DNA of 32,259 nt, from IMG/VR virus record IMGVR_UViG_3300027291_000115, positions 1 through 32,259 of that record; one strand, 5' to 3'. Each line of letters begins with the position of its first letter. Positions within the stretch are counted from its first letter, which is position 1. The position numbers and the translations under genes were made by a program. Of the stretch, positions 1,396 to 23,442 are shown piece by piece. This stretch comes from a virus. Below the pieces are notes generated by a model. It saw only the letters and a program-made list of their open reading frames with translations. It did no database searches and was not told the origin of the DNA.

Positions 1396-4300
1396 TTAAT
1401 AAGAAACGAAATCGCCTGTGGCGACATCAATCACACCGGTTAATTTGCCGATCAATGTAACGTCTTGAGCTGCAATTGTGTTTGCAGCACTAACCTGTTC
1501 AATCAAATACAAGTAACCATCAGTGCCATCATTGACGAAAGCTATGAAGCTATCACCAATAGCTACTGCCGTGGTGGTCAGGCCGTTAAGGGCAGTAATA
1601 GCAACACCCATAGTGCCGTCAGCCAGAGCTGTGGTGATTTCAACAAAGCGATCAGTGTTCGCGACTACACCAGCTGCAGCGATGGTCTTCAAGGTGTCAA
1701 CCTCGGTACCCAATACGTTTGTAACCAGATCGGCAGCAAAATACAGCTTGTCAGTACCAGAAGCGAAGGCCGTTACGGTATCGCCTACTGCCCTGATCGT
1801 ATAGTCGTTGTCTGTACCTGCTGCTGAGCCAGTTTCGGTAGCGATGAGCGCGGCCGTTGTACCTGTCCACAAAACTCTGTCAGCGGATGATGTTGTTTCA
1901 GTCAACACAATAATGTCAGCGTCGTCACCGCCTGTGATTGTGTCAGCACCTAGACCACCTACGATGTAATCCACACCCGCCAGAGTCGACAATGTTTCAC
2001 CAGAAGTGCTGCCTTGGAAGTAATCGTTACCAGAAGTACCAGTCACGATCTCGAAACTGCTGAGAGTGTCAGTCACTGTTGAGAACAGTGCATCTTGCGT
2101 AGCATAGATTGCGGAGGATGAGCTTGCAGGAACGCTTGCTAACGATGCTGATATTCCAATCGTACCGCTCATTGCAGTATTGATTGTGGCAGCAGTCACA
2201 GCAGTGGCACCCAAGTTAACGGCGATACCTGTTGCTGTGCCAGTGTTCAACCCTTCAACCGCAGCAACCAAACCACCATCACCAACAGCATAGGTATCGG
2301 TACCCAAGCCGCCACTCAGAACGTCCGCACCGGCACCACCAGTGATCGTGTCAGCTGACACGCCACCTGTAATCGTGTCGGCCAAAGTGCTGCCCGTCAA
2401 TACGTTAGAAGCAGTAGCAGAACCGGTAATCGCCGATTTAATGATGGAGTTCACAGCAGACAAAGTCACACCACCAGTGTTGGTCGAACCATCAATAGTC
2501 AATGTTGTGCCAGCGCTTGTGCTGTTAGCATTCAAAGTTGTAATGGTGACAGCGCCAGAGCCAGTAACGTTCAGCGTGGTCAAGTCTGTTGCCGTTAAAG
2601 TGCCTACAGTGATTGCACCTGTGCTTGAAGATGCCAAATTAATGGTCTCTTCATTGTCAGCAGTCAATGCGGTCAAGGTTGTCCCTGTCAAACCGGTCAC
2701 AGTTAAGCTGTTTGTCGTGCTATCAACCAAACGAGTGATCGTTGCAGTTGAACCCGTAGCTGTATTGGAATAGGTGGTGATACCAGAACCAACGTTTGAG
2801 AAGATTGATGTCACACCGGCGTTTTGCAATTTAGTGAATGTACTGTTGTCCAAGAAAACAGCCATGTCATGAGTGACACCACCTGTATCACGCAATGTTT
2901 CAAATCCAGATACACCGGAAGCTGTAGCTGCTGTTCCTGCAACAGCCAAGGAAAGTATGTCAGTACCTTCGCCACCCGCAATAGTGTTGCCTGCTGTCAG
3001 TGTTGCAGCAATGGTGTCATTGCCTGAACCACCGTCTACGCTGTCCGAAGCACCGCCACCTGTAGTGATGGTGTCATTGCCGTCACCGCCCAACAAAGTA
3101 TCGTTGCCTGCACCGCCAGTGATGACGTCGTTGCCTGCACCGCCGCTGATGGAGGATGCCGAGTCACCAATCAGCGTATCAGAGTTGCCTGAGCCTGTGA
3201 TGCTGGTTACGCCTACAGCAGCAGCACCCATAGTCAGAACAGCTGAACCTGTCAGGCCAGATGCGTCGATGACGTTTGCGGTAATTGCACCCGTGGTCAC
3301 AACACTGTTAGAGCCCGAAATATTCAATGTGGTTGTACCACCAGAGTCAGCTGCCAATGTGATGGTTGCCACGTCTTGCTGAGTAGCAGCGCCACCCGTG
3401 CCAGATGTAGTGATGTTGACTGTTTCAAAGCCATTCACTGCGACGGCCATGCCATTCAAGGCGTCAACTGCGGAGCCATTGTTGGCAATGGTCAGTGAGT
3501 CGGTTGTTGCGACGCCAGTGTCGTTCACGGTCAAACCAGTGGTTGACAAACCAGCAGTCAGCTTTACGGTTTTTGTACCTGCTTCAAATGTGATCACGCT
3601 GGCGCCAGCGTTGGCAACAGCCAATTCGACAGTCGAAATGCCTGCTTGAACGCTTGCTGTGGTCAGGGTGTTGCCTGCCAGTGCGTCAGAAACGGTGATC
3701 TCTTCGAAGTTTGTGATCAACGGTGTTGTCAGAGCTGTCAAGGCTGTCAAGTCAGCAACGACGCCAACCAAATCATCCGTACCGTCACCGCCATTGACTG
3801 TGTCAGTGGCCGTCAATGCACCAGTGGCAAAGGTCACACGGTCGTTACCCGCACCTGCGGAGATCGAGTCCACAGCGACAACTGCACGAGTAATAGCGTC
3901 GTTACCAGCACCACCAGTGATGGTAGAAGCTGTTGCGCCAGCGGCAGTCAGTGTGATAGCACCAGTCGCTGTAGAAGCGTCGATGGTGGTTGCTGTTGCG
4001 TTAGCAAGCGTTGTGAATGTCAAAGCTTTGTCGCCAGTGATATTCAAGGTGGTCACGCTATCGGCAATCAGGTCAGCCAATGTGTTGGCCGAGCCTGTTG
4101 AATTCAAGGTAATGGTCTCAACGCCGGCAACAGTCAGAGTTGCTGCACCAGTTACGTTTGACAGACCAACAGTTGCGGAGTCACTGGTGCCCGTAACGCT
4201 GGAATAAGTCAAAACCTGAGCTGCGATGGCTGTGTCCTTGATGGTCACTGCCTGCGTAGTTGCGATTCCAGAGATAGTCAAACCAACGGTGGAGCCTTGG

Positions 4301-4562
4301 TTGGTCAAGCTGGTGATACCGCTGGCATTGCCCAAGTTGACTGTAGATGCAGTTGTTGTGTTTGTTAGTGTGACCGATTCAATGTTAGCAACTTTGGCAG
4401 GAGTAACAGAACCAATCACTACCGCGAACATCTCATCGGTACCATCACCACCATCCAGTTGGTCGCCCGAGTTCAGTGTTTGCAGACCAGCAGTGCTCAA
4501 GCCAGCATCAAAGCTATCGTCGCCTGTTCCACCGGTAAAATTGTTTGTACCTGTAGTGAGCG
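1396..4562 (-). pseudogene. S-layer/RTX-like surface protein 1, body without its 5' end
   Basis: About 1,054 codons of a giant Thr/Ala/Gly/Asp-rich protein are present. RTX-type calcium-binding nonapeptide repeats of the GGxGxDxx form cluster around the middle (GGAGNDVITGGAGNDTLLGG) and near the C-terminus (GGLGADTITGGDDAD). The remainder is beta-strand repeat with almost no Lys, Arg or Cys. Such proteins are usually secreted by a type I ABC exporter through an uncleaved C-terminal signal and assemble on the surface. The frame ends upstream at 4562, just before LTTGTNNFTGG. A stop codon and mobile-element DNA follow, with no ATG and no ribosome site. The only in-frame early start is a TTG at 4500. 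As it stands the gene is probably silent. It may be a stored cassette rather than a decayed gene, because the reading frame is intact to its stop. Confidence 0.85.
4537..4562. other. Putative attachment site 1 at the S-layer LTT codons
   Basis: AAAATTGTTT, four variable bases and CTGTAGTGAGCG match 18530-18555 at 23 of 26 positions. Similarity to the second locus stops exactly after 4562. On the minus strand the core CGCTCACTACAG encodes the LTT of a motif common near the start of RTX/S-layer repeat regions. To the right lie an XRE gene and a tyrosine integrase, as expected of an attL junction. The crossover position within the core cannot be fixed from one sequence. Confidence 0.72.
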
Positions 4563-5168: not shown

Positions 5169-6365
5169 ATGGCTCAAATTTTACTCACCCAAGCGCTTGT
5201 CAAAACTGCCGTGTGCCCAAATGACCAAACTAAGCAGGAAATTACTGATAAAGGATGCAAAGGACTGATCCTTGAAGTTAGACAAAGCGGAGGCAAAACA
5301 TATTATCTAAGATACACCAACCATCGTGGGAAGCAACGACAGTATCGTATCGGGAACGCCACAGTTTTGACCTTGTCACAAGCCAGAAGCAAGTCAAAAC
5401 TAGCGCTAAATCAGGCTGCCTTGGGCCAAGACCCCTGCGAAGAGAAAGAGCAGACCAAGAGCGTCCCCACCTTCGCGGATTTCATTGCTGACCAGTACAT
5501 GCCCTATGTCAAGTCGTACAAGCGGTCGTGGGACACCGATGTGAGCCTGCTCAAGAACCACCTGTTACCTCGGTTCGGCAAGCGCTACATGGATGAGATC
5601 ACCCGCCACGACATCGTCAAGATGCACGCCGACCGCAAAGCTTCGGGGGCGGCTGCTGGATCAGCCAATCGGCTTCTCATTTTGATGAGGTACATATTCA
5701 ACCTGACCCTCAAGTGGGAGGTGCCGGGCATCAAGTCCAACCCCTGCAAGGGTATCCCGCTGATGGAAGAGAACAACAAGATGGAGCGGTACTTGTCAGT
5801 TGATGAGGCCGAGCGCTTGTATGGGGCGGTGTGCAAGAGCGAGAACACCATGCTCAAGTACATCGTGCCGATGCTCATCCTCACAGGAGCCAGAAAGCGC
5901 GAAGTGCTGGACGCCCGATGGCAAGACTTTGATCTGGACCGCAGGGCTTGGCGTATCCCCATCAGCAAATCAGGCAAGGCTCGGCATGTGCCTCTATCAG
6001 ACGGTGCACTGGCGCTTCTAGCCACCATGCCCCACTTGACGGATTGCAAGTGGGCGTTTGCTAACCCTGAGACGGGCAAGCCGTATGTATCGATCTTTTG
6101 CGCTTGGAACACAGCGCGTAAGAGCGTAGGGCTGTCGGATGTTCGGATGCACGATTTACGGCACAGTTTCGCGAGTCTGCTGATCAACTCAGGTCGCACC
6201 TTGTACGAGGTGCAGCACATCCTCGGGCACACGCAGGTCAAGACCACACAGAGATACGCCCACCTCAGTCAGGACACCTTACTGGCTGCGGCCAATTCAG
6301 CAACGACTGCTTTGGGAGCAGCAATGCGGCCCATGGTGCAACCCGTCCTTTCTTTTACCGCTTGA
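5169..6365 (+). CDS. int: Tyrosine recombinase/integrase of element 1
   Basis: This 398-residue phage-type integrase has an N-terminal arm-binding domain (DUF4102-like, about 1-95), a SAM-like core-binding domain (about 100-185) and a catalytic domain. The catalytic residues appear intact: R242 in TGARKRE, H328 and R331 in HDLRH, H354 in LGH and nucleophile Y363 in RYAHL. It should catalyse integration and excision at the adjacent core. It is clearly related to the integrase at 19227-20441, especially in the core-binding domain (KRSW.TD..L..NHLLP), which fits use of the same target. The start ATG is preceded by AAAGGA at 8-bp spacing. Confidence 0.95.
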   Translation: MAQILLTQALVKTAVCPNDQTKQEITDKGCKGLILEVRQSGGKTYYLRYTNHRGKQRQYRIGNATVLTLSQARSKSKLALNQAALGQDPCEEKEQTKSVPTFADFIADQYMPYVKSYKRSWDTDVSLLKNHLLPRFGKRYMDEITRHDIVKMHADRKASGAAAGSANRLLILMRYIFNLTLKWEVPGIKSNPCKGIPLMEENNKMERYLSVDEAERLYGAVCKSENTMLKYIVPMLILTGARKREVLDARWQDFDLDRRAWRIPISKSGKARHVPLSDGALALLATMPHLTDCKWAFANPETGKPYVSIFCAWNTARKSVGLSDVRMHDLRHSFASLLINSGRTLYEVQHILGHTQVKTTQRYAHLSQDTLLAAANSATTALGAAMRPMVQPVLSFTA

Positions 6366-15370: not shown

Positions 15371-18300
15371 TTAGATGAAGTCAGCTGTTGTCAGAGTAGT
15401 CACACCCAACAACACCACAGCAGCCGTGTTAAGAGCGTTGGTCAAACCAGCGTTGGCCAGGTTGGTGAACACCAAAGAGTCAGCACCAGCAGCTGCTTGT
15501 GTAAACACACCAGTACTTTCGACATAAGTACCGCGAATACTGTAGTTGTTACCTACTGTCAAAGCCTGCACGTCTGCTGCAACGGAGATCAAACCGTAGT
15601 TAGCCGCAGTGGCCACATCCAATTTGTCTGTGCCGCTGGTGAAGCCAGAGATCACGTCCACACCGTTACCGAAGGTGATAGTTTCGCCAGCAACAACCGC
15701 TGCTTCTGTGATCGTTTCTGCAGTACGAGCAACTGATGCACCTGCAGCAATGACAAACGTATCTGCACCAGATCCACCAACCATAAAGTCAGCACCTGTA
15801 CCACCGGTGATTGTTTGTGCGCCAGTAGCGTTACCTGCAATGTAGTCACCACCAGTTGTACCAGTCACCCGTGTGAAGTTGCTGATGGTGTCGACAAAAC
15901 TGGATGCACCTGCCGCGTTTGTTGCAAACAAGTAACCAGCTTTGCCGGCACCAATTTCGCCTAAAGCACCGCTGATGAAGCTAACTGCTGTACCGCCTGA
16001 GACAAAGCGGCCTGAAGCCTCGCCTGAGGTAATGGCGGTTGCGCTCAAGTTAATGATTGCGCCAGACGATGCAGTGTTACCTGCGTCTGTGACAGCAACC
16101 ATGCCAGAGGCGTCAAGCACGTTGGTACCCGAACCACCGTCCAATGTATCAGCACCCAAGCCACCGGCAAGCGTATCGCTGCCAGATCCGCCAGAGATAG
16201 AGTCGGCTTTTGTGCCACCGGTAATCACGTCTGCACCTGAGCCACCAGTGATGGTGGATGCCACTGTGCTCACAGATGTCACTGTCAAAGCACCAGCGTA
16301 GCTGGCAGAGCTGATTGAAGTGATGGCCGTGTTGCCTGTCAAGGTCAATGTAGTTGACAAGCCATTACCGTCCAAAGTAATGGTCTTGGCTTGCAAGTCA
16401 GCCAAAGTGATGGTGGCAGCAGCGTCAGCAGTTGCGCCAGTGGCTGTTGTATCAGCATCGTTGTGCGTGATCTTGACGTTCTCAATGCCTGTGGTGGTTG
16501 CGCCGTAAGCAGCAGCACCAACACCCGTTGCGCCTGTATAGATCAGGTTGATGGTGTCGTTGGTACCAGTCGCTGTTGCCAAAGCAAAAGTTGTAGTGCC
16601 AGTTTGTGCGATCAGTGTTTCGACTGTTGCGTTGTCAGCAAAGCCAGTGATGCTGTCACCACCACCGTTGTCAGCAGCAATTTGCACGTAGTTGATCGAG
16701 CCAAGGCGCGACATGTCAGGGTTGGTGGTCAATGCATCGGCAAAGTTCACACGCTCAACGTTCTTGAGGTTGTTGATAAACGTTGTGTTTGCTGCAAAGG
16801 TCAAGCCTGCCAATGTTGCAGCGTCAGCAGTACCAATCACCAATGTGTCAGTGCCGTCGCCACCATCGATCTTCTGACCAGAGGCCAACATGCCTGTGAG
16901 GGTCAATGTGTCGTTACCTGCGCCACCGTCGATAACAGTAGTTGTACCTGCTGCACCTTGGGTAATGGAGTCGTTGCCGTCGCCACCAGACAATGTATCG
17001 TTACCGCCACCGCCAGTAACAGTGTCGTTACCTGCACCGGCAGTCACGTTATCGGCGGCTGCACCACCAGTGATGTTGTCGTTACCAGCACCGCCGTCGA
17101 TGGTCGTAGCAGTTGCAGAACCAACGATCGTGTCAGCGTTGGCTGTACCGATGATGTTGGTCACACCGACTGTGGCGCCAACGTTGGTAAATGTACGTGT
17201 ACCAGTCAAGCCAGAAGCATCAACAGTACCCGATGTGGCACCAGTAATGGTGATCACGCCAGTTGTCACTGTGTTGTCGCCGACGAAACGGATTGTTTGA
17301 GCGCCGCCTGTATCAGGCGTAGCACCAATGGTTGTCAACGTCTGGCTAGTCTTGGTGAGGGTGCCAGCAGTTGAGGTATTGATCGTTACAGTCTCGAAGC
17401 CGCCGATTGTCAATGCGTTGGCAAGAACGTTAACCGCACCAACAGCAGGCGCAATGTTCAAGGTCAAAGTGTCAGTCGTAGCTGAACCTGTATCGTTCAC
17501 TGTCAATGCGTGTGCTTGAGCGGCTGTTTGAGTCAGCGTACGGTCACCCGCTTGGAAAACGACTGTACCAGCGCCACCAGGAGCAACTTGCAATTCAACA
17601 GCAGAAATGCCTGACTGGACGTTTGCAGTGGTCAATGTGTTGGCACCCAGAGCATCGGACAAAGCAAGGGTTTCAAAGTTCTTGAGGATTGGGGCGCTTG
17701 GTGTGGCAATGGTCAAACCGCGCAGTTCAGCAGAAGTACCAACCAGCTTGTCAGTACCTGCACCGCCATCCACGGAATCTGTGTTTGCCAGGTTGGCAGT
17801 GAAAGTGATGGTGTCGTTGCCATCACCCAAAGAGATGTTGTCATTGACTGCTGTACCACCGGTCATGGTCACGTTGTCATTACCAGCGCCACCAACCAAA
17901 GTCGCAGCTGTTGCGTTGTTGGGGACGATGTAAGTAACAGCAGCTGTTGAAGCAGAAGAGTCAACAGACAAAGTTGTTGCTGGCAGTGTGGCCAAGTTCA
18001 ATGTTTGGCTGCCGGATGTGTTGATCTTTGTTGTGTTCGCAGCAGTGATTGCTGTAACGGCGTTTGCAGAGCCAGCGGAAACAATGTTCAGTGTTTCAAC
18101 GCCTGCAACAACGTTTGTACCGGCGGTTTGACCGTTCAGAGTCAAAGTTGCGGTATCTGCAATGCCTGCAACAGCAGCTGTCGTGAATGTGAATGTTGCA
18201 CCAACTGCACTGTTGGATACGTTGAGGCCAACGGCTGTCGAAGCAATACCAGTAAACGTTGGAGCTGTTGTGCTTCCGTTGCTGGAAACATTGGTCACGC

Positions 18301-18555
18301 CAGTAGAGCCTGTCAAGGCAACGGTGACGCCAGTAGTGTCGGTCAAATTGATGTTTTCAATGTTGCTGACGTTTGACAAAGTCACAGTAGAACCAGCGAC
18401 CGAGCCGGTAATGTTCAATGTATCTGTACCTGCACCACCATTCAAAGTGTCGCCAGTAGTCAATGTTGCGTTAGCAGCTGTCGCTGTTGTGTTGGGGGCA
18501 TTGAATGTATCGTTGCCAGCGCCGCCTGCAAAATTGTTTAGATCTGTAGTGAGCG
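15371..18555 (-). pseudogene. S-layer/RTX-like surface protein 2, body without its 5' end
   Basis: About 1,060 codons are present, paralogous to the first gene; for example NTLTTANVQSGIS here matches NTLTTASVQAGIS there. RTX calcium-binding repeats form a mid-protein block (GGGGNDTLSGGDGNDS) and C-terminal blocks (GGSGSDTLAGGLGADTLDGG; GGTGADFMVGGSGADTF). The C-terminus ends LGVTTLTTADFI, with a hydrophobic tail typical of type I secretion substrates. The frame opens at 18555 just before LTTDLNNFAGG, with a stop codon slightly upstream and no ATG or ribosome site. Both S-layer bodies are cut in the same codon phase. In this arrangement the gene lacks expression signals. It would regain them if joined to an S-layer 5' end across the core. 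Confidence 0.85.
18530..18555. other. Putative attachment site 2 at the S-layer LTT codons
   Basis: AAAATTGTTT-AGAT-CTGTAGTGAGCG, a direct repeat of 4537-4562. To the left is S-layer body 2; to the right is DNA leading to the second XRE/integrase pair. It can be read as the left junction of the P2-like prophage and, at the same time, as the right junction of the 4551-18555 segment. Confidence 0.72.
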
Positions 18556-19226: not shown

Positions 19227-20441
19227 ATGCCAGCACAAGCGTTGACGACCGAATTCCTGGCGACCCTGCCAGGTCGCGAGCCTGCCTCCGGGGCCGTGAG
19301 TTACTTCGATACGGAGATCAAGGGCTTCTTGCTGGAGCATCGCGCCAGCGGCGGGGCGACGTTTTATTTCCGCTACCGCGATGCGGCCGGCAAGGTGCGA
19401 CTGAACCGGATTGGCCGGGCTGATGAGATTTCGGTGTCGGACGCCCGGGCCAAGGCGCACAAGATGAAGCAAATGGTCACCGAGGGTGGCGACCCAAAGG
19501 TGGAGAACCATCGCTTCAAGGATGTGCCGACCTTCGGGAATTTCGTGGCCGAGCGCTATCTGCCCTACGCCAAGACGAGGAAGCGCAGCTGGGAGACGGA
19601 TGAGACGATGCTGCGCAATCACCTGCTGCCGGTATTTGCCGATTTCCGGATGAACCGGATCACCCGCTCGGATGTGGTGGCCTTCCACCACGCGGTGTTC
19701 GAGAAGGGTTACGCGGCCGGGACTTGCAACCGAATGATCGTGCTGATGAAGTTCATCTACAACTGCGCGATCCGCTGGGACATCCTGCCGTCCAAGGGCA
19801 ACCCCTGCGATGGTGTGGAGCCCTTTGAGGACCACGGCGCGCGGGAGCGTTACCTGACCACCGAGGAGGTACAGCGGCTGTTTGACGAGTTGGACACCAA
19901 CCGCAATGTGCAGGTGGGTCAGGTGATCCGGCTGCTGCTCTACACCGGGGCGAGGAAGCGCGAGGTCCTGGACGCCCGGTGGGACGAGATCGATTTCAAC
20001 CGGCGGATGCTGACGGTGCCGGCGGCGCGGTCGAAGTCGAAGAAGCCGCGCCACATTCCGCTCTCCGATGCCGCGGTGGAATTGCTGCTGTCGCTGCCTC
20101 GGCAAGAGGACATCCCCTGGGTGTTTTTCAACCCGAAGACCAAGAAGCCGCCGGTGTCGATCTTTTATGCCTGGGACTCGATCCGCAAAAAGGTGGGGCT
20201 GGAGGAAGTGCGGTTGCACGACTTGCGCCACAGCTACGCGAGTTTCCTGGTCAATGCCGGGCGGTCGTTGTACGAGGTGCAGAAGCTCCTGGGCCACCAC
20301 GATCCCAAGGTGACGATGCGCTATGCGCACCTGTCGCCGCAGGCGATGCTCGAGGCGGTCAATGTGGTGGGGAATGTCGTGGGGCGGCGGCCGGTGGTGG
20401 CTGCCAACAATGGAGCACCGCAGGTCGCGGCTACGGCGTGA
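19227..20441 (+). CDS. int: Tyrosine recombinase/integrase of the prophage
   Basis: The 404-residue phage-type integrase has an N-terminal arm-binding domain, a core-binding domain (about 105-190) and a catalytic domain. All catalytic residues are present: R243 in TGARKRE, H331 and R334 in HDLRH, H357 in LGHH and Y366 in RYAHL. AGGAG lies 9 bp before the ATG. It is a clear relative of the element 1 integrase, and both junctions share the same core, so it likely has the same attB. It is convergent with the next gene, and the 3' ends overlap by 11 bp. Confidence 0.96.
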   Translation: MPAQALTTEFLATLPGREPASGAVSYFDTEIKGFLLEHRASGGATFYFRYRDAAGKVRLNRIGRADEISVSDARAKAHKMKQMVTEGGDPKVENHRFKDVPTFGNFVAERYLPYAKTRKRSWETDETMLRNHLLPVFADFRMNRITRSDVVAFHHAVFEKGYAAGTCNRMIVLMKFIYNCAIRWDILPSKGNPCDGVEPFEDHGARERYLTTEEVQRLFDELDTNRNVQVGQVIRLLLYTGARKREVLDARWDEIDFNRRMLTVPAARSKSKKPRHIPLSDAAVELLLSLPRQEDIPWVFFNPKTKKPPVSIFYAWDSIRKKVGLEEVRLHDLRHSYASFLVNAGRSLYEVQKLLGHHDPKVTMRYAHLSPQAMLEAVNVVGNVVGRRPVVAANNGAPQVAATA

Positions 20442-20931
20442 CCTGCCGAGCTCCCGCGTCAGCGCGGAAGTAGCCGTCCCAAAACCGCAGCGCCTCTTCG
20501 AACAGTTCGCTCAAGGGGCGCTGCTCTCCTCCTTCCAGGGTCACGATGTACTCAGCCGGGTGTTCAGAAACCGGACCACCCGGCCCGAAGTAGAACGTGG
20601 CCCCCAGCATCTCAACGTCTGTCGCCGCCACTTTGCCTTGCGGCTTGGTCATTCGAGCGTGCTTGTACAGCGTGGTGATGTCGTGCATCACCCCCAAGGC
20701 CGGGCACTGCTGGCGCAAGGTGGCCTGAAGCGCTTTTTTTTCTTGGTGTGGCGAGTTCAGGCGCAGGTCCTCGAAAACCCAGTCGATCAAGTGCCACAGC
20801 GACGCAGCCAAGTTGAACGCTTCCCTAGCAGTAGGGTGCTGACGGTAGTGCAGCGCGTTCGGGCGCACTACTTCTTGCCAAAAGTGCCCTGCGCTGGTGA
20901 TGCCCAGGACTTCAGTTACCCCAGAAGCCAT
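20431..20931 (-). CDS. Cargo cassette gene 4, unknown 166-residue protein
   Basis: No domain recognised. The protein is mostly helical, with two conserved-looking segments, LWHLIDWVFEDLRLN (about 45-59) and CPALGVMHDITTLYKHARM (about 76-94), which are rich in His, Asp and Lys. Its ATG shares the A of the upstream TAA stop (TAATG), so it is translationally coupled to the HDCDL gene. It is the last gene of a four-gene minus-strand operon. Confidence 0.78.
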   Translation of the reverse strand: MASGVTEVLGITSAGHFWQEVVRPNALHYRQHPTAREAFNLAASLWHLIDWVFEDLRLNSPHQEKKALQATLRQQCPALGVMHDITTLYKHARMTKPQGKVAATDVEMLGATFYFGPGGPVSEHPAEYIVTLEGGEQRPLSELFEEALRFWDGYFRADAGARQVTP

Positions 20932-21782
20932 TAGGCAGGCATCTCGCCGACAGCCAAAAAAGGCTCTGGAGGGTCTTGGCGCAGGCTGATGTATTCGGCA
21001 CGCCACTGATCCACTTTACGAAGATCCGATAGTGGGAAGCGAAGGTCGGCTACTGCTTCGCAAGATTCCAGAGTGATCTCAGTTGCTGCGTCTGGAGGAC
21101 CATAAGCCGACTGGAAAATCTCCCTAATCTCAGAGACCACCTCTTCAGCAGCCAACCTGGCAGGCTGCCCCCCTGCACTGGCGTCATAGACAACAGTAAT
21201 CCTCAGGTCGTAAGGCGTTCCATCCGTGAGCTCAGCTGCACGGTTTTCACCCAAGTCAAAAAACACCCCGACCAAATGGGCGCTCACTTTTTCAAGGGTC
21301 TTCCCGAGTCGATCCTCTACCGTCTCTTTCTTGCTGACATTTTTGCGAAGATGCGTCTCAAACGCGTTCGGAAAAGCTGGACGACCGTAGCGTGCTGCCA
21401 GCCATTGCTTGAGTGCGCGCTTCTCCTCGTCAGACAAAACCCAGCTACTGTCTGGCTTGGCAGCGGCGATCCGTGATTTGCAAATGGATTGCCTAGCTGT
21501 TATCTGCAGGTCAAGAAACTGCTGGGTACCAGACGGCGTATCGAAAGCCAAGTGGAGGCGCCGAACATTACGAGCACGCGCGAACTGCTTGTTCAGTTTG
21601 TCGACCACATCTCCGACCATAACCTCGACCTCGGGCTCTCTGTCATTCGTCAGATCACAGTCGTGCGTAATGACTAGAGCCCGTTTGAGGCTCGAGGAAG
21701 TCTCATCGAATAAGCCGGCCGCGATGGCGTCCGCCTGGGCAATTACGCTGCCCTGCCTCCAAGGCGTATCACGTCCGAGCAT
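20931..21782 (-). CDS. Cargo cassette gene 3, HDCDL-motif protein
   Basis: The 283-residue protein has ALVITHDCDLTND near the N-terminus (H40, D41, C42, D43), a compact His/Asp/Cys cluster that looks like a metal or active site. The middle is basic and helical (KQWLAARYGRPAFPNAFETH). The C-terminal part looks alpha/beta. I do not know a named family for it and give no function. AAGGGAG precedes the ATG, 9 bp after the XRE gene. It fits the pattern of variable cargo, often defence genes, near the ends of P2-type prophages. Confidence 0.8.
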   Translation of the reverse strand: MLGRDTPWRQGSVIAQADAIAAGLFDETSSSLKRALVITHDCDLTNDREPEVEVMVGDVVDKLNKQFARARNVRRLHLAFDTPSGTQQFLDLQITARQSICKSRIAAAKPDSSWVLSDEEKRALKQWLAARYGRPAFPNAFETHLRKNVSKKETVEDRLGKTLEKVSAHLVGVFFDLGENRAAELTDGTPYDLRITVVYDASAGGQPARLAAEEVVSEIREIFQSAYGPPDAATEITLESCEAVADLRFPLSDLRKVDQWRAEYISLRQDPPEPFLAVGEMPA

Positions 21783-21791
21783 AGTTCTCCC

Positions 21792-22415
21792 TTACGCATC
21801 TTCGCGCGACGCGGGAATTGACTGAGAGGTCTGCCAATCTGAAGTTGGCTTTGCCTTGGATTTGGCCAGTCCAGACCGCTCGTAGGCACTCTCCATAGCA
21901 CGTGATTCGGCAATCAGGACATCCACGGCCTCACGCCAATCAGCCCCGGCCTTTACGATGTCCATGAGAGAGCGGTCACCGAAGGTTTTCATTTTGAGAA
22001 GGCTGCCGGCACGTGCCACACCGGCTTCTTTGAAAGCATCAGCGATCTGACTGAGCGCCTGCACACGAGCCGACTTTTCAGCCTCTGGCTTCGAGTCGTT
22101 TGACAACCACTTGTAAATAGCTTGTCGCGAAACATCAAAAATGGATGCCAGGTCTGAAACAGCAGGGTTCAATACAGTGCGAATATTTTCCAAATGCTGC
22201 AGTGGCGAGCGCACATCAACACGGCGTGCACCATTGCTCTCAGGATTACTAATTTCAAAATGAAAAGGCACCCGATGCTCAAGAAGATGTCGCCAAGCAT
22301 TAGATCGCTCTACGCCATAAGCACTACCCGTACCCACGAGCACCACAAAGAACGCTGTTTTTGCGGCATTGCTCAGGGGCTGTAAGGGGATAACACCCAC
22401 AGGGGTTGCATACAT
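21792..22415 (-). CDS. Cargo cassette gene 2, HTH protein
   Basis: The 207-residue protein has a helix-turn-helix at about 74-105 (LENIRTVLNPAVSDLASIFD, then VSRQAIYKWLSNDSKPE). The N-terminal 70 residues contain a hydrophobic AAKTAFFVVLVGTGSAYG stretch. The C-terminal 90 residues are helical and charged. It is probably the cassette's own repressor or a DNA-sensing component. It lies 17 bp after gene 1, with a strong GAGGAGG site. Confidence 0.82.
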   Translation of the reverse strand: MYATPVGVIPLQPLSNAAKTAFFVVLVGTGSAYGVERSNAWRHLLEHRVPFHFEISNPESNGARRVDVRSPLQHLENIRTVLNPAVSDLASIFDVSRQAIYKWLSNDSKPEAEKSARVQALSQIADAFKEAGVARAGSLLKMKTFGDRSLMDIVKAGADWREAVDVLIAESRAMESAYERSGLAKSKAKPTSDWQTSQSIPASREDA

Positions 22416-22432
22416 AACCTAACCCTCCTCTA

Positions 22433-23227
22433 TCAACGCCAGACTTCTTCGGCATGAGGCGTAATTGTCGCCTCGAAAGATTGCTTAATTCCCGTGTGCA
22501 GCGACGCCAACTGCGCCTTGATTTGTTCAAAATCAATAGGGATAGTGCCTTCAACAAAATGATCGGTGTCGATCACCGCGTGGGAGATCGTGTCGCTCCT
22601 CTGGAAGCGAGGCATTGGCTGCAGCCCGTGAGGAATCAGGTCTGGTGGATAGCCAAGAGGAGATGTCGCACGATACACACGCGCTACCAAAGTCCCTGAT
22701 TTGACCAGCGGCCCTGTTTCTGTCTCAAAAACAGACTCGCTCATCGCGTAACGCGGCTTCGCACCGAAGGAGACGCCCTGCAAACCATCTGCGAAATACT
22801 GCGAAACCTGCTCACCTTCGACAGGAATCACTGCATCAAGATAACGCAGACCCAGTCGAGAAATGTGCTCCAAAGAAACCACCTTGTGAACAGCATGCAA
22901 TCCCTGCACTAGCTCTGGCAAGAACTCATTCCGGGTTTCATAGTGGGTTGTGTGATAGGCAAGAGAGGATGGCCCCAAAATAAAACCAGCAGTCCGATCG
23001 GCCTTTGAAATCAGCCAATTGGTAACCTGCATTACTTCAGGTTTAGTCGGCGCTTGTCCAGCAGCCCCCACGAACTGCAATTGCGTGATCTCTTGCGGCT
23101 CAAAAAGGGTATACCCTTCCCGACGCAGGATGTCTTGAATATCGTCGACGTACTTCGCCATGGCAGCCACAGGATTAAACTGCGCTTGAGCCAGTGCGTA
23201 ATAAACAGGCGCCTTGGTCATTTTCAC
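22433..23227 (-). CDS. Cargo cassette gene 1, TIGR04255-like protein
   Basis: The 264-residue protein resembles the sporadically distributed TIGR04255 family. It opens APVYYALAQAQFNPVAAMAK and has YVDDIQDILRREGY, FILGPSSLAYHTTHYE and ISRLGLRYLDAVIP. The usual length of about 250-270 residues fits. Biochemical function of the family is unknown to me. Members often appear in accessory operons beside regulators. The GTG at 23227 is chosen because AAGGAG lies 8-9 bp upstream; an ATG two codons later is possible. Confidence 0.78.
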   Translation of the reverse strand: MKMTKAPVYYALAQAQFNPVAAMAKYVDDIQDILRREGYTLFEPQEITQLQFVGAAGQAPTKPEVMQVTNWLISKADRTAGFILGPSSLAYHTTHYETRNEFLPELVQGLHAVHKVVSLEHISRLGLRYLDAVIPVEGEQVSQYFADGLQGVSFGAKPRYAMSESVFETETGPLVKSGTLVARVYRATSPLGYPPDLIPHGLQPMPRFQRSDTISHAVIDTDHFVEGTIPIDFEQIKAQLASLHTGIKQSFEATITPHAEEVWR

Positions 23228-23269
23228 GCGTTCTCTCCTTTGGTTGGTTGCCTAGCAAGCTGCCGCCCT

Positions 23270-23309
23270 GGTTGTCACAGGGGTTGTCAGTTTACACCAT
23301 GGTTGACAC
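23270..23309 (-). promoter_or_regulatory. Three-copy GGTTGTCA/GGTTGACA operator candidate for the cargo cassette
   Basis: The plus strand has GGTTGTCAC (23270-23278), GGTTGTCAG (23282-23290) and GGTTGACAC (23301-23309) in the leader of the cassette. The last two also form TGTCA...TGACA dyad symmetry. The HTH protein of the cassette is the likely ligand. Confidence 0.5.
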
Positions 23310-23360
23310 GAATTCAATGAGAACCGTTCAACACCACGAAGTCTCGGACATCACAAACGC

Positions 23361-23408
23361 AAAAATCCCCCGACCCCACTACCCATGAAGGCAATGAGAT
23401 CGGGGGAT
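23361..23408 (-). terminator. Terminator at the end of the lysis module
   Basis: On the minus strand ATCCCCCGA (23400-23408) pairs with TCGGGGGAT (23365-23373), followed by five T. The long loop of 26 nt is unusual. It follows the last late gene by about 35 bp and separates phage late transcription from the cargo cassette. Confidence 0.75.
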
Positions 23409-23442
23409 CGTCGTTTCAGGTTGTCGTGCCGGGCAGCACCAG

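What the first reader, a model, noticed from the sequence alone, without database searches (positions are those of the whole stretch)
20431..23309. Four-gene cargo operon (TIGR04255-like, HTH, HDCDL protein, unknown) between lysis genes and integrase
The tightly packed operon has its own leader repeats and terminator boundary and sits in a variable position of a P2-type element, where defence systems commonly occur. None of the effector-like genes has a function I know. The His-Asp-Cys-Asp cluster suggests a catalytic or metal site. A new anti-phage system is a reasonable hypothesis.
Basis: inference. Interest (0 to 1): 0.66.

Follow-up and report, generated by a model that had tools for sequence, protein, structure and literature searches.

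The report
Three-gene toxin-like phage defence cassette
A virus integrated in a bacterium carries a swappable three-gene cassette that recurs intact across many bacterial phyla and belongs to an apparently undescribed family in which one shared protein is paired with many different toxin-like proteins, probably to protect the host cell from other viruses.

Summary
The operon is real, but the module has three genes, not four: A (TIGR04255 family), B (helix-turn-helix protein) and C (the 'HDCDL' protein). A-B-C recur in the same order in nearly every intact locus found, on plasmids, a phage and chromosomes across many phyla. Gene D belongs to the phage backbone: sibling phages keep D and carry, in the same slot, a gene that matches the validated defence gene PD-T4-5.

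The 'leader repeats' are a four-box direct-repeat operator with 12-bp spacing, conserved upstream of A in 58 of 70 loci. In 11 of 12 host genomes it occurs exactly once. The 12-bp geometry tracks the HTH gene.

Sampling TIGR04255 in about 950 genomes showed that it usually heads a three-gene chain (82 of 91) whose third gene varies. C's family is the largest; others are true MazF/PemK, HEPN, PIN and HNH. C's predicted fold best matches MazF, but MazF's catalytic residues are absent. In C only Cys42 is nearly universal, so 'HDCDL' as such is not conserved.

Best reading: a tripartite toxin-antitoxin-like defence cassette, with C the effector, B the autoregulating partner and A the shared sensor or neutraliser. 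Toxicity and phage protection are untested. No paper found mentions TIGR04255.

The parts
20908..23352 (-). exchangeable cassette (operator + A + B + C)
   Evidence: DNA homology to sibling viral contigs L140-L142 (84-90% identity on both sides) stops at 23353/23356 and resumes at 20907/20880; the siblings carry a PD-T4-5-like gene in between
23272..23308 (-). operator: four direct-repeat boxes TGTCAA-N6-TGTAAA-N-TGACAA-N6-TGACAA
   Evidence: 58/70 homologous loci against 1.5% of random windows; once per genome in 11/12 genomes; 12-bp spacing peak; tied to HTH-type middle genes
22433..23227 (-). A, TIGR04255 family protein (shared component)
   Evidence: NCBIfam TIGR04255, 147.8 bits; AlphaFold pLDDT 94, weak AdoMetDC/TBP-like fold matches
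21792..22415 (-). B, HTH protein with N-terminal hydrophobic segment and G[TS]G[GSA] motif (GTGS here)
   Evidence: HTH hits; motif near-invariant in a divergent tail
20931..21782 (-). C, probable effector: QG...C42 family, MazF-like predicted fold
   Evidence: fold search, conservation, BLAST cluster
20431..20931 (-). D, phage backbone gene, not part of the module
   Evidence: kept in cassette-free siblings at 82-83% identity; absent from all other A-B-C loci
23364..23409 (-). terminator of the upstream lysis genes, outside the cassette
   Evidence: 20-pair stem followed by T run

Best explanation
A, B and C form a mobile tripartite toxin-antitoxin-like cassette, most likely for anti-phage (abortive-infection type) defence. 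B binds the four boxes over the promoter and keeps its own operon low. C is the toxic effector, a protein of MazF-like fold marked by QG, an invariant Cys and an Arg, and acts on RNA or translation. A, the component shared by all TIGR04255 modules, holds the effector in check together with B and/or senses infection; loss of the A-B hold on C stops growth of the infected cell. Shown by computation: conserved three-gene unit, operator and its link to the HTH gene, exchange at a defence slot, effector swapping among TIGR04255 modules. Inferred: DNA binding by B, toxicity of C, the inhibitory or sensing role of A, phage protection.
For: A-B-C in one order on plasmids, a phage and chromosomes of many phyla; pairwise distances of A, B and C correlate at 0.87-0.93. 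Sibling phages swap the cassette for a PD-T4-5-like gene; PD-T4-5 is a validated AbiF/D-like system (PMC9519451). Operator in 58/70 loci, one per genome, geometry kept while box letters drift by clade, tied to HTH-type middle genes 11/17 against 2/74 (Fisher 1.8e-8). TIGR04255 heads a tight three-gene chain in 82/91 against 11% in control; third genes include PemK/MazF (1e-18), HEPN, PIN and HNH and the C superfamily (29 of 88). On the tree of A, MazF-type A proteins are sister (98) to two C-type A proteins, and 23 effector changes are needed. C's ten best PDB fold matches are all MazF.
Against: No toxicity or protection data. The C-PemK sequence link is weak (hhalign 0.3% directly, 17% through the short QGD family) and MazF's catalytic Arg and Thr are not conserved, so C may bind rather than cut. 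An HTH gene and an operator alone would also fit a regulatory operon. No random-gene control was run for defence-island enrichment; neighbours are a mix of mobile, restriction-modification and housekeeping genes.
Confidence: 0.55

Rival explanations
1. A toxin-antitoxin-like module that serves mainly to stabilise the mobile element (addiction) or to control the prophage, with phage defence incidental or absent.
For: Found on many plasmids and mobile elements; an apparently autoregulated operator is typical of addiction modules.
Against: The exact slot holds a PD-T4-5-like defence gene in sibling phages; chromosomal copies are common.
Confidence: 0.22
2. A chaperone-type tripartite system in the manner of TAC/CmdTAC: A folds or protects B by gripping B's hydrophobic GTGG tail; a phage protein that binds A frees B for degradation and releases C.
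For: Near-invariant G[TS]G[GSA] motif in an otherwise divergent, often hydrophobic tail of B; a natural A-B fusion lacks exactly this tail (L045); CmdC senses phage capsid protein this way (PMC11618068).
Against: A's predicted fold does not match SecB among the best hits; only one fusion; similar motifs in other middle proteins are only weakly enriched (9 of 76 against 3 expected). This is a more detailed form of the best explanation, not its opposite.
Confidence: 0.25
3. Not a toxin system: C's MazF-like domain is a binding module and A-B-C is a regulatory or DNA/RNA-handling operon.
For: MazF catalytic residues absent; A and C have no close solved relative.
Against: True MazF, HEPN, PIN and HNH nucleases occupy the same third position in sister modules.
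Confidence: 0.15

Closest known systems
MazF/PemK toxins (PF02452)
   Same: C's N-terminal half has a MazF-like predicted fold; QG(D) lines up with MazF's RGD in profile comparison; true MazF occupies the same position in sister TIGR04255 modules
   Different: no Pfam match; catalytic Arg (RP motif) and Thr absent; an invariant Cys, an Arg and an extra C-terminal half instead
Toxin-antitoxin-chaperone systems (TAC, CmdTAC)
   Same: three genes: effector, likely DNA-binding partner, third component that may act as sensor or chaperone
   Different: A is TIGR04255, not a SecB-like chaperone; gene order A-B-C; C is not a known ADP-ribosyltransferase or HigB
PD-T4-5 (AbiF/D-like)
   Same: occupies the same slot of the same phage lineage
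   Different: single gene with an Abi/HEPN-type match, no similarity to A, B or C

Membership tests
TIGR04255 family | score over the curated NCBIfam cut-off | tested here: met
   147.8 bits against 30
MazF/PemK | PF02452 match | tested here: not met
   no match for C or any of 42 relatives
MazF/PemK | catalytic Arg (RP motif) and Thr conserved | tested here: not met
   not conserved in the alignments
MazF/PemK | MazF fold | tested here: inconclusive
   ten best PDB matches are MazF, E 2e-3 to 2e-2, TM by target 0.41-0.59
MazF/PemK | sequence-specific RNA cleavage | not testable with these tools
   needs biochemistry
Type II toxin-antitoxin system | DNA-binding partner that binds its own operator | tested here: inconclusive
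   HTH and a single conserved operator per genome that tracks the HTH gene; binding not shown
Type II toxin-antitoxin system | toxicity of one protein and neutralisation by its partner | not testable with these tools
   needs expression experiments
Toxin-antitoxin-chaperone (TAC) | SecB-like chaperone | tested here: not met
   A has no Pfam match and its best fold matches are AdoMetDC/TBP-like
Toxin-antitoxin-chaperone (TAC) | antitoxin tail that needs the chaperone | tested here: inconclusive
   conserved tail motif in B and one fusion that lacks it
Known anti-phage systems (PADLOC 2.0) | match to a system model | tested here: not met
   only weak hits, E above 0.004, to A or B; none to the window's C

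The most novel reading that the evidence does not exclude
TIGR04255 is the shared component of a large, undescribed modular immune platform in several phyla: one conserved sensor or neutraliser protein combined with at least 14 recurrent effector families, many with their own middle protein (a Cys-bearing MazF-fold family, MazF, HEPN, PIN, HNH and several unknown ones), exchanged between lineages of the shared protein.
Probability: 0.45. Interest if true: 0.82.

Novelty: new variant of a known kind. Interest (0 to 1): 0.7.

Why it matters
If true, one uncharacterised protein family that NCBI calls sporadic marks a broad class of three-gene conflict systems with interchangeable effectors, present in about 5-18% of sampled species in four phyla. 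It would give many new toxin families at once, a clear operator to test, and a question that can be answered directly: what does the shared protein sense or hold?

Tried and rejected
Four-gene system: rejected, D is a backbone gene. HDCD as a catalytic or metal tetrad: rejected, only the Cys persists in members not selected by the motif; conservation in alignment A4 is biased because the genome scan pattern contained CD. Repeats as transposon ends: considered because of TniQ/TniB neighbours and set aside, since the array occurs once per genome and tracks the HTH gene. Direct C-PemK homology by profile comparison: not supported. Solved-structure sequence search for A and C: nothing. A general SGG/GTGG tail motif in all middle proteins: weak. 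E. coli copies of the Klebsiella variant: none. The first genome scan with the single C sequence found nothing; the alignment was needed. Literature: no paper in the library holds 'TIGR04255'.

Full report
WHAT IS THERE. The window is a virus record whose right part carries P2-like tail genes (GpU, GPD-type hub, tail sheath), a holin and an endolysin, then a strong terminator at 23364-23409. Four packed minus-strand ORFs follow, A to D, and then a convergent tyrosine integrase. A belongs to TIGR04255 (147.8 bits), B has an HTH, C and D match no library.

THE UNIT IS THREE GENES. tblastn with C found nine plasmids and two records of an Acinetobacter phage. In all ten regions opened, an A-type gene, a middle gene (HTH or unannotated) and C follow in that order. 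An alignment-based scan of genome contigs, based on C alone, found 57 loci; profiles detected A and B directly upstream of C in nearly all loci with enough upstream sequence (the exceptions are contig ends, very diverged planctomycete copies and L054). Hosts include Beta-, Gamma- and Alphaproteobacteria, Myxococcota, Deinococcota, Cyanobacteria, Verrucomicrobia and MAGs assigned to Bacteroidota and Planctomycetes. Distances of A, B and C correlate at 0.87-0.93. One locus (L045) has A and B fused in one frame, with B's tail missing. D occurs in none of these except close relatives of the window.

THE SLOT. D alone led to three further viral contigs with the same flanking genes. Homology at 84-90% identity stops just below the terminator (23353) and resumes at the start of D (20907). 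Between these points the siblings carry one gene that matches the PADLOC model of PD-T4-5 at 1.8e-18; PD-T4-5 was selected experimentally as an anti-phage gene and is a distant relative of AbiF/D (PMC9519451). The slot is thus a cargo slot for defence-type genes, and the cassette is operator + A + B + C.

THE OPERATOR. The leader repeats read TGTCAA-N6-TGTAAA-N-TGACAA-N6-TGACAA on the coding strand. A pair of such boxes 12 bp apart lies upstream of A in 58 of 70 loci against 1.5% of random windows of the same loci. Exact hexamer repeats peak at a spacing of 12 bp, in 54 upstream regions; box letters drift by clade (TGTGTAA, TGTATA, TGTGCAA) while the 12-bp step stays. These loci are related, so counts are not independent events. 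The four-box pattern with up to two mismatches occurs exactly once in 11 of 12 whole genomes and the reversed control never. Among 91 TIGR04255 modules the 12-bp repeat is found in 11 of 17 with an HTH middle gene and in 2 of 74 without. This supports B as the binder. A -10-like TAAACT overlaps the boxes by eye; the consensus scan found no promoter.

C. The AlphaFold model has mean pLDDT 88 (pTM 0.59). Foldseek's ten best PDB matches are MazF toxins, moderate in strength. MazF's catalytic Arg and Thr are not conserved, and direct profile comparison fails. BLAST clusters C with shorter relatives that share QGD and TCD; these align with PemK in the expected register but at 17% probability. In members not chosen by motif, only the Cys is constant.

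A WIDER FAMILY. TIGR04255 was sampled in Pseudomonadota (30 of 399 genomes), Cyanobacteriota (21 of 194), Myxococcota (20 of 113) and Bacteroidota (12 of 248). The seed genome of each draw was chosen because it holds the module, which inflates each count by one. Phylum names rest on the seed genomes' record titles. Of 91 genes analysed, 82 head a tight three-gene chain against 11% in a control with the same picker on the other strand; the A-middle junction overlaps by 4 bases in 37. The picker is permissive and a few chains are probably false. The 88 third genes fall into 14 recurrent families plus singletons; C's is the largest (29). Others are PemK/MazF, HEPN, PIN and HNH and several unknown ones. 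Many third-gene families have their own middle family, which suggests cognate pairs. On the tree of A (quick method) effector labels need 23 changes where 15 is the least possible; the MazF-type A proteins are sister (98) to two with C-type effectors. The effector thus appears to be exchanged while A is kept.

HOW IT PROBABLY WORKS. B represses the operon; C is the effector; A is the shared neutraliser or sensor. The most attractive detailed form is chaperone-like: A grips B's hydrophobic G[TS]G[GSA] tail, as suggested by the near-invariance of the motif and by the tail-less natural fusion. The motif is only weakly enriched in other middle proteins, so this is kept as a separate rival. None of the biochemical steps has been shown.

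KNOWN OR NEW. No paper in the library contains TIGR04255; PADLOC has no model for C and only weak hits for A and B. The kind, a tripartite toxin-antitoxin-like defence module, is known; the shared component, the C family, the operator and the modular range appear undescribed in what could be searched. Most subscription papers were not held.

Noticed in passing
L045:6690-7973: Natural in-frame A-B fusion in Rugamonas sp. A1-17 that removes B's hydrophobic GTGG tail.
   Followed up: partly
L140:5285-5998, L141:5285-5998, L142:5285-5998: PD-T4-5-like (Abi/HEPN-type) gene in the same phage slot as A-B-C.
   Followed up: yes
L083:2511-2855, L204:2479-2859, L205:2128-2511: True PemK/MazF as third gene behind TIGR04255 and a roughly 97-aa middle gene: a three-gene MazF module for which no description was found.
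   Followed up: partly
L088:581-991, L087:2856-3317, L079:246-944, L153:291-746, L184:249-779: Several recurrent unknown effector-position families behind TIGR04255, many with their own middle-gene family; middle genes of one group share a NWDGYxA motif.
   Followed up: no
window 1399-4500 and 15374-18463: Two roughly 1030-aa RTX calcium-binding repeat proteins, with glycosyltransferases (one hits GT4-conflict) and methyltransferases between them, left of the integrase; looks like host DNA beside the prophage.
   Followed up: no
window 5169-6362: Second tyrosine integrase of the same type as the one at 19227-20441, so the stretch between them may be another integrated element.
   Followed up: no
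window 20431-20931: Backbone gene D overlaps the stop codon of whichever cargo precedes it (TAATG behind C, TGATG behind the PD-T4-5-like gene), so its translation may be coupled to the cargo.
   Followed up: partly
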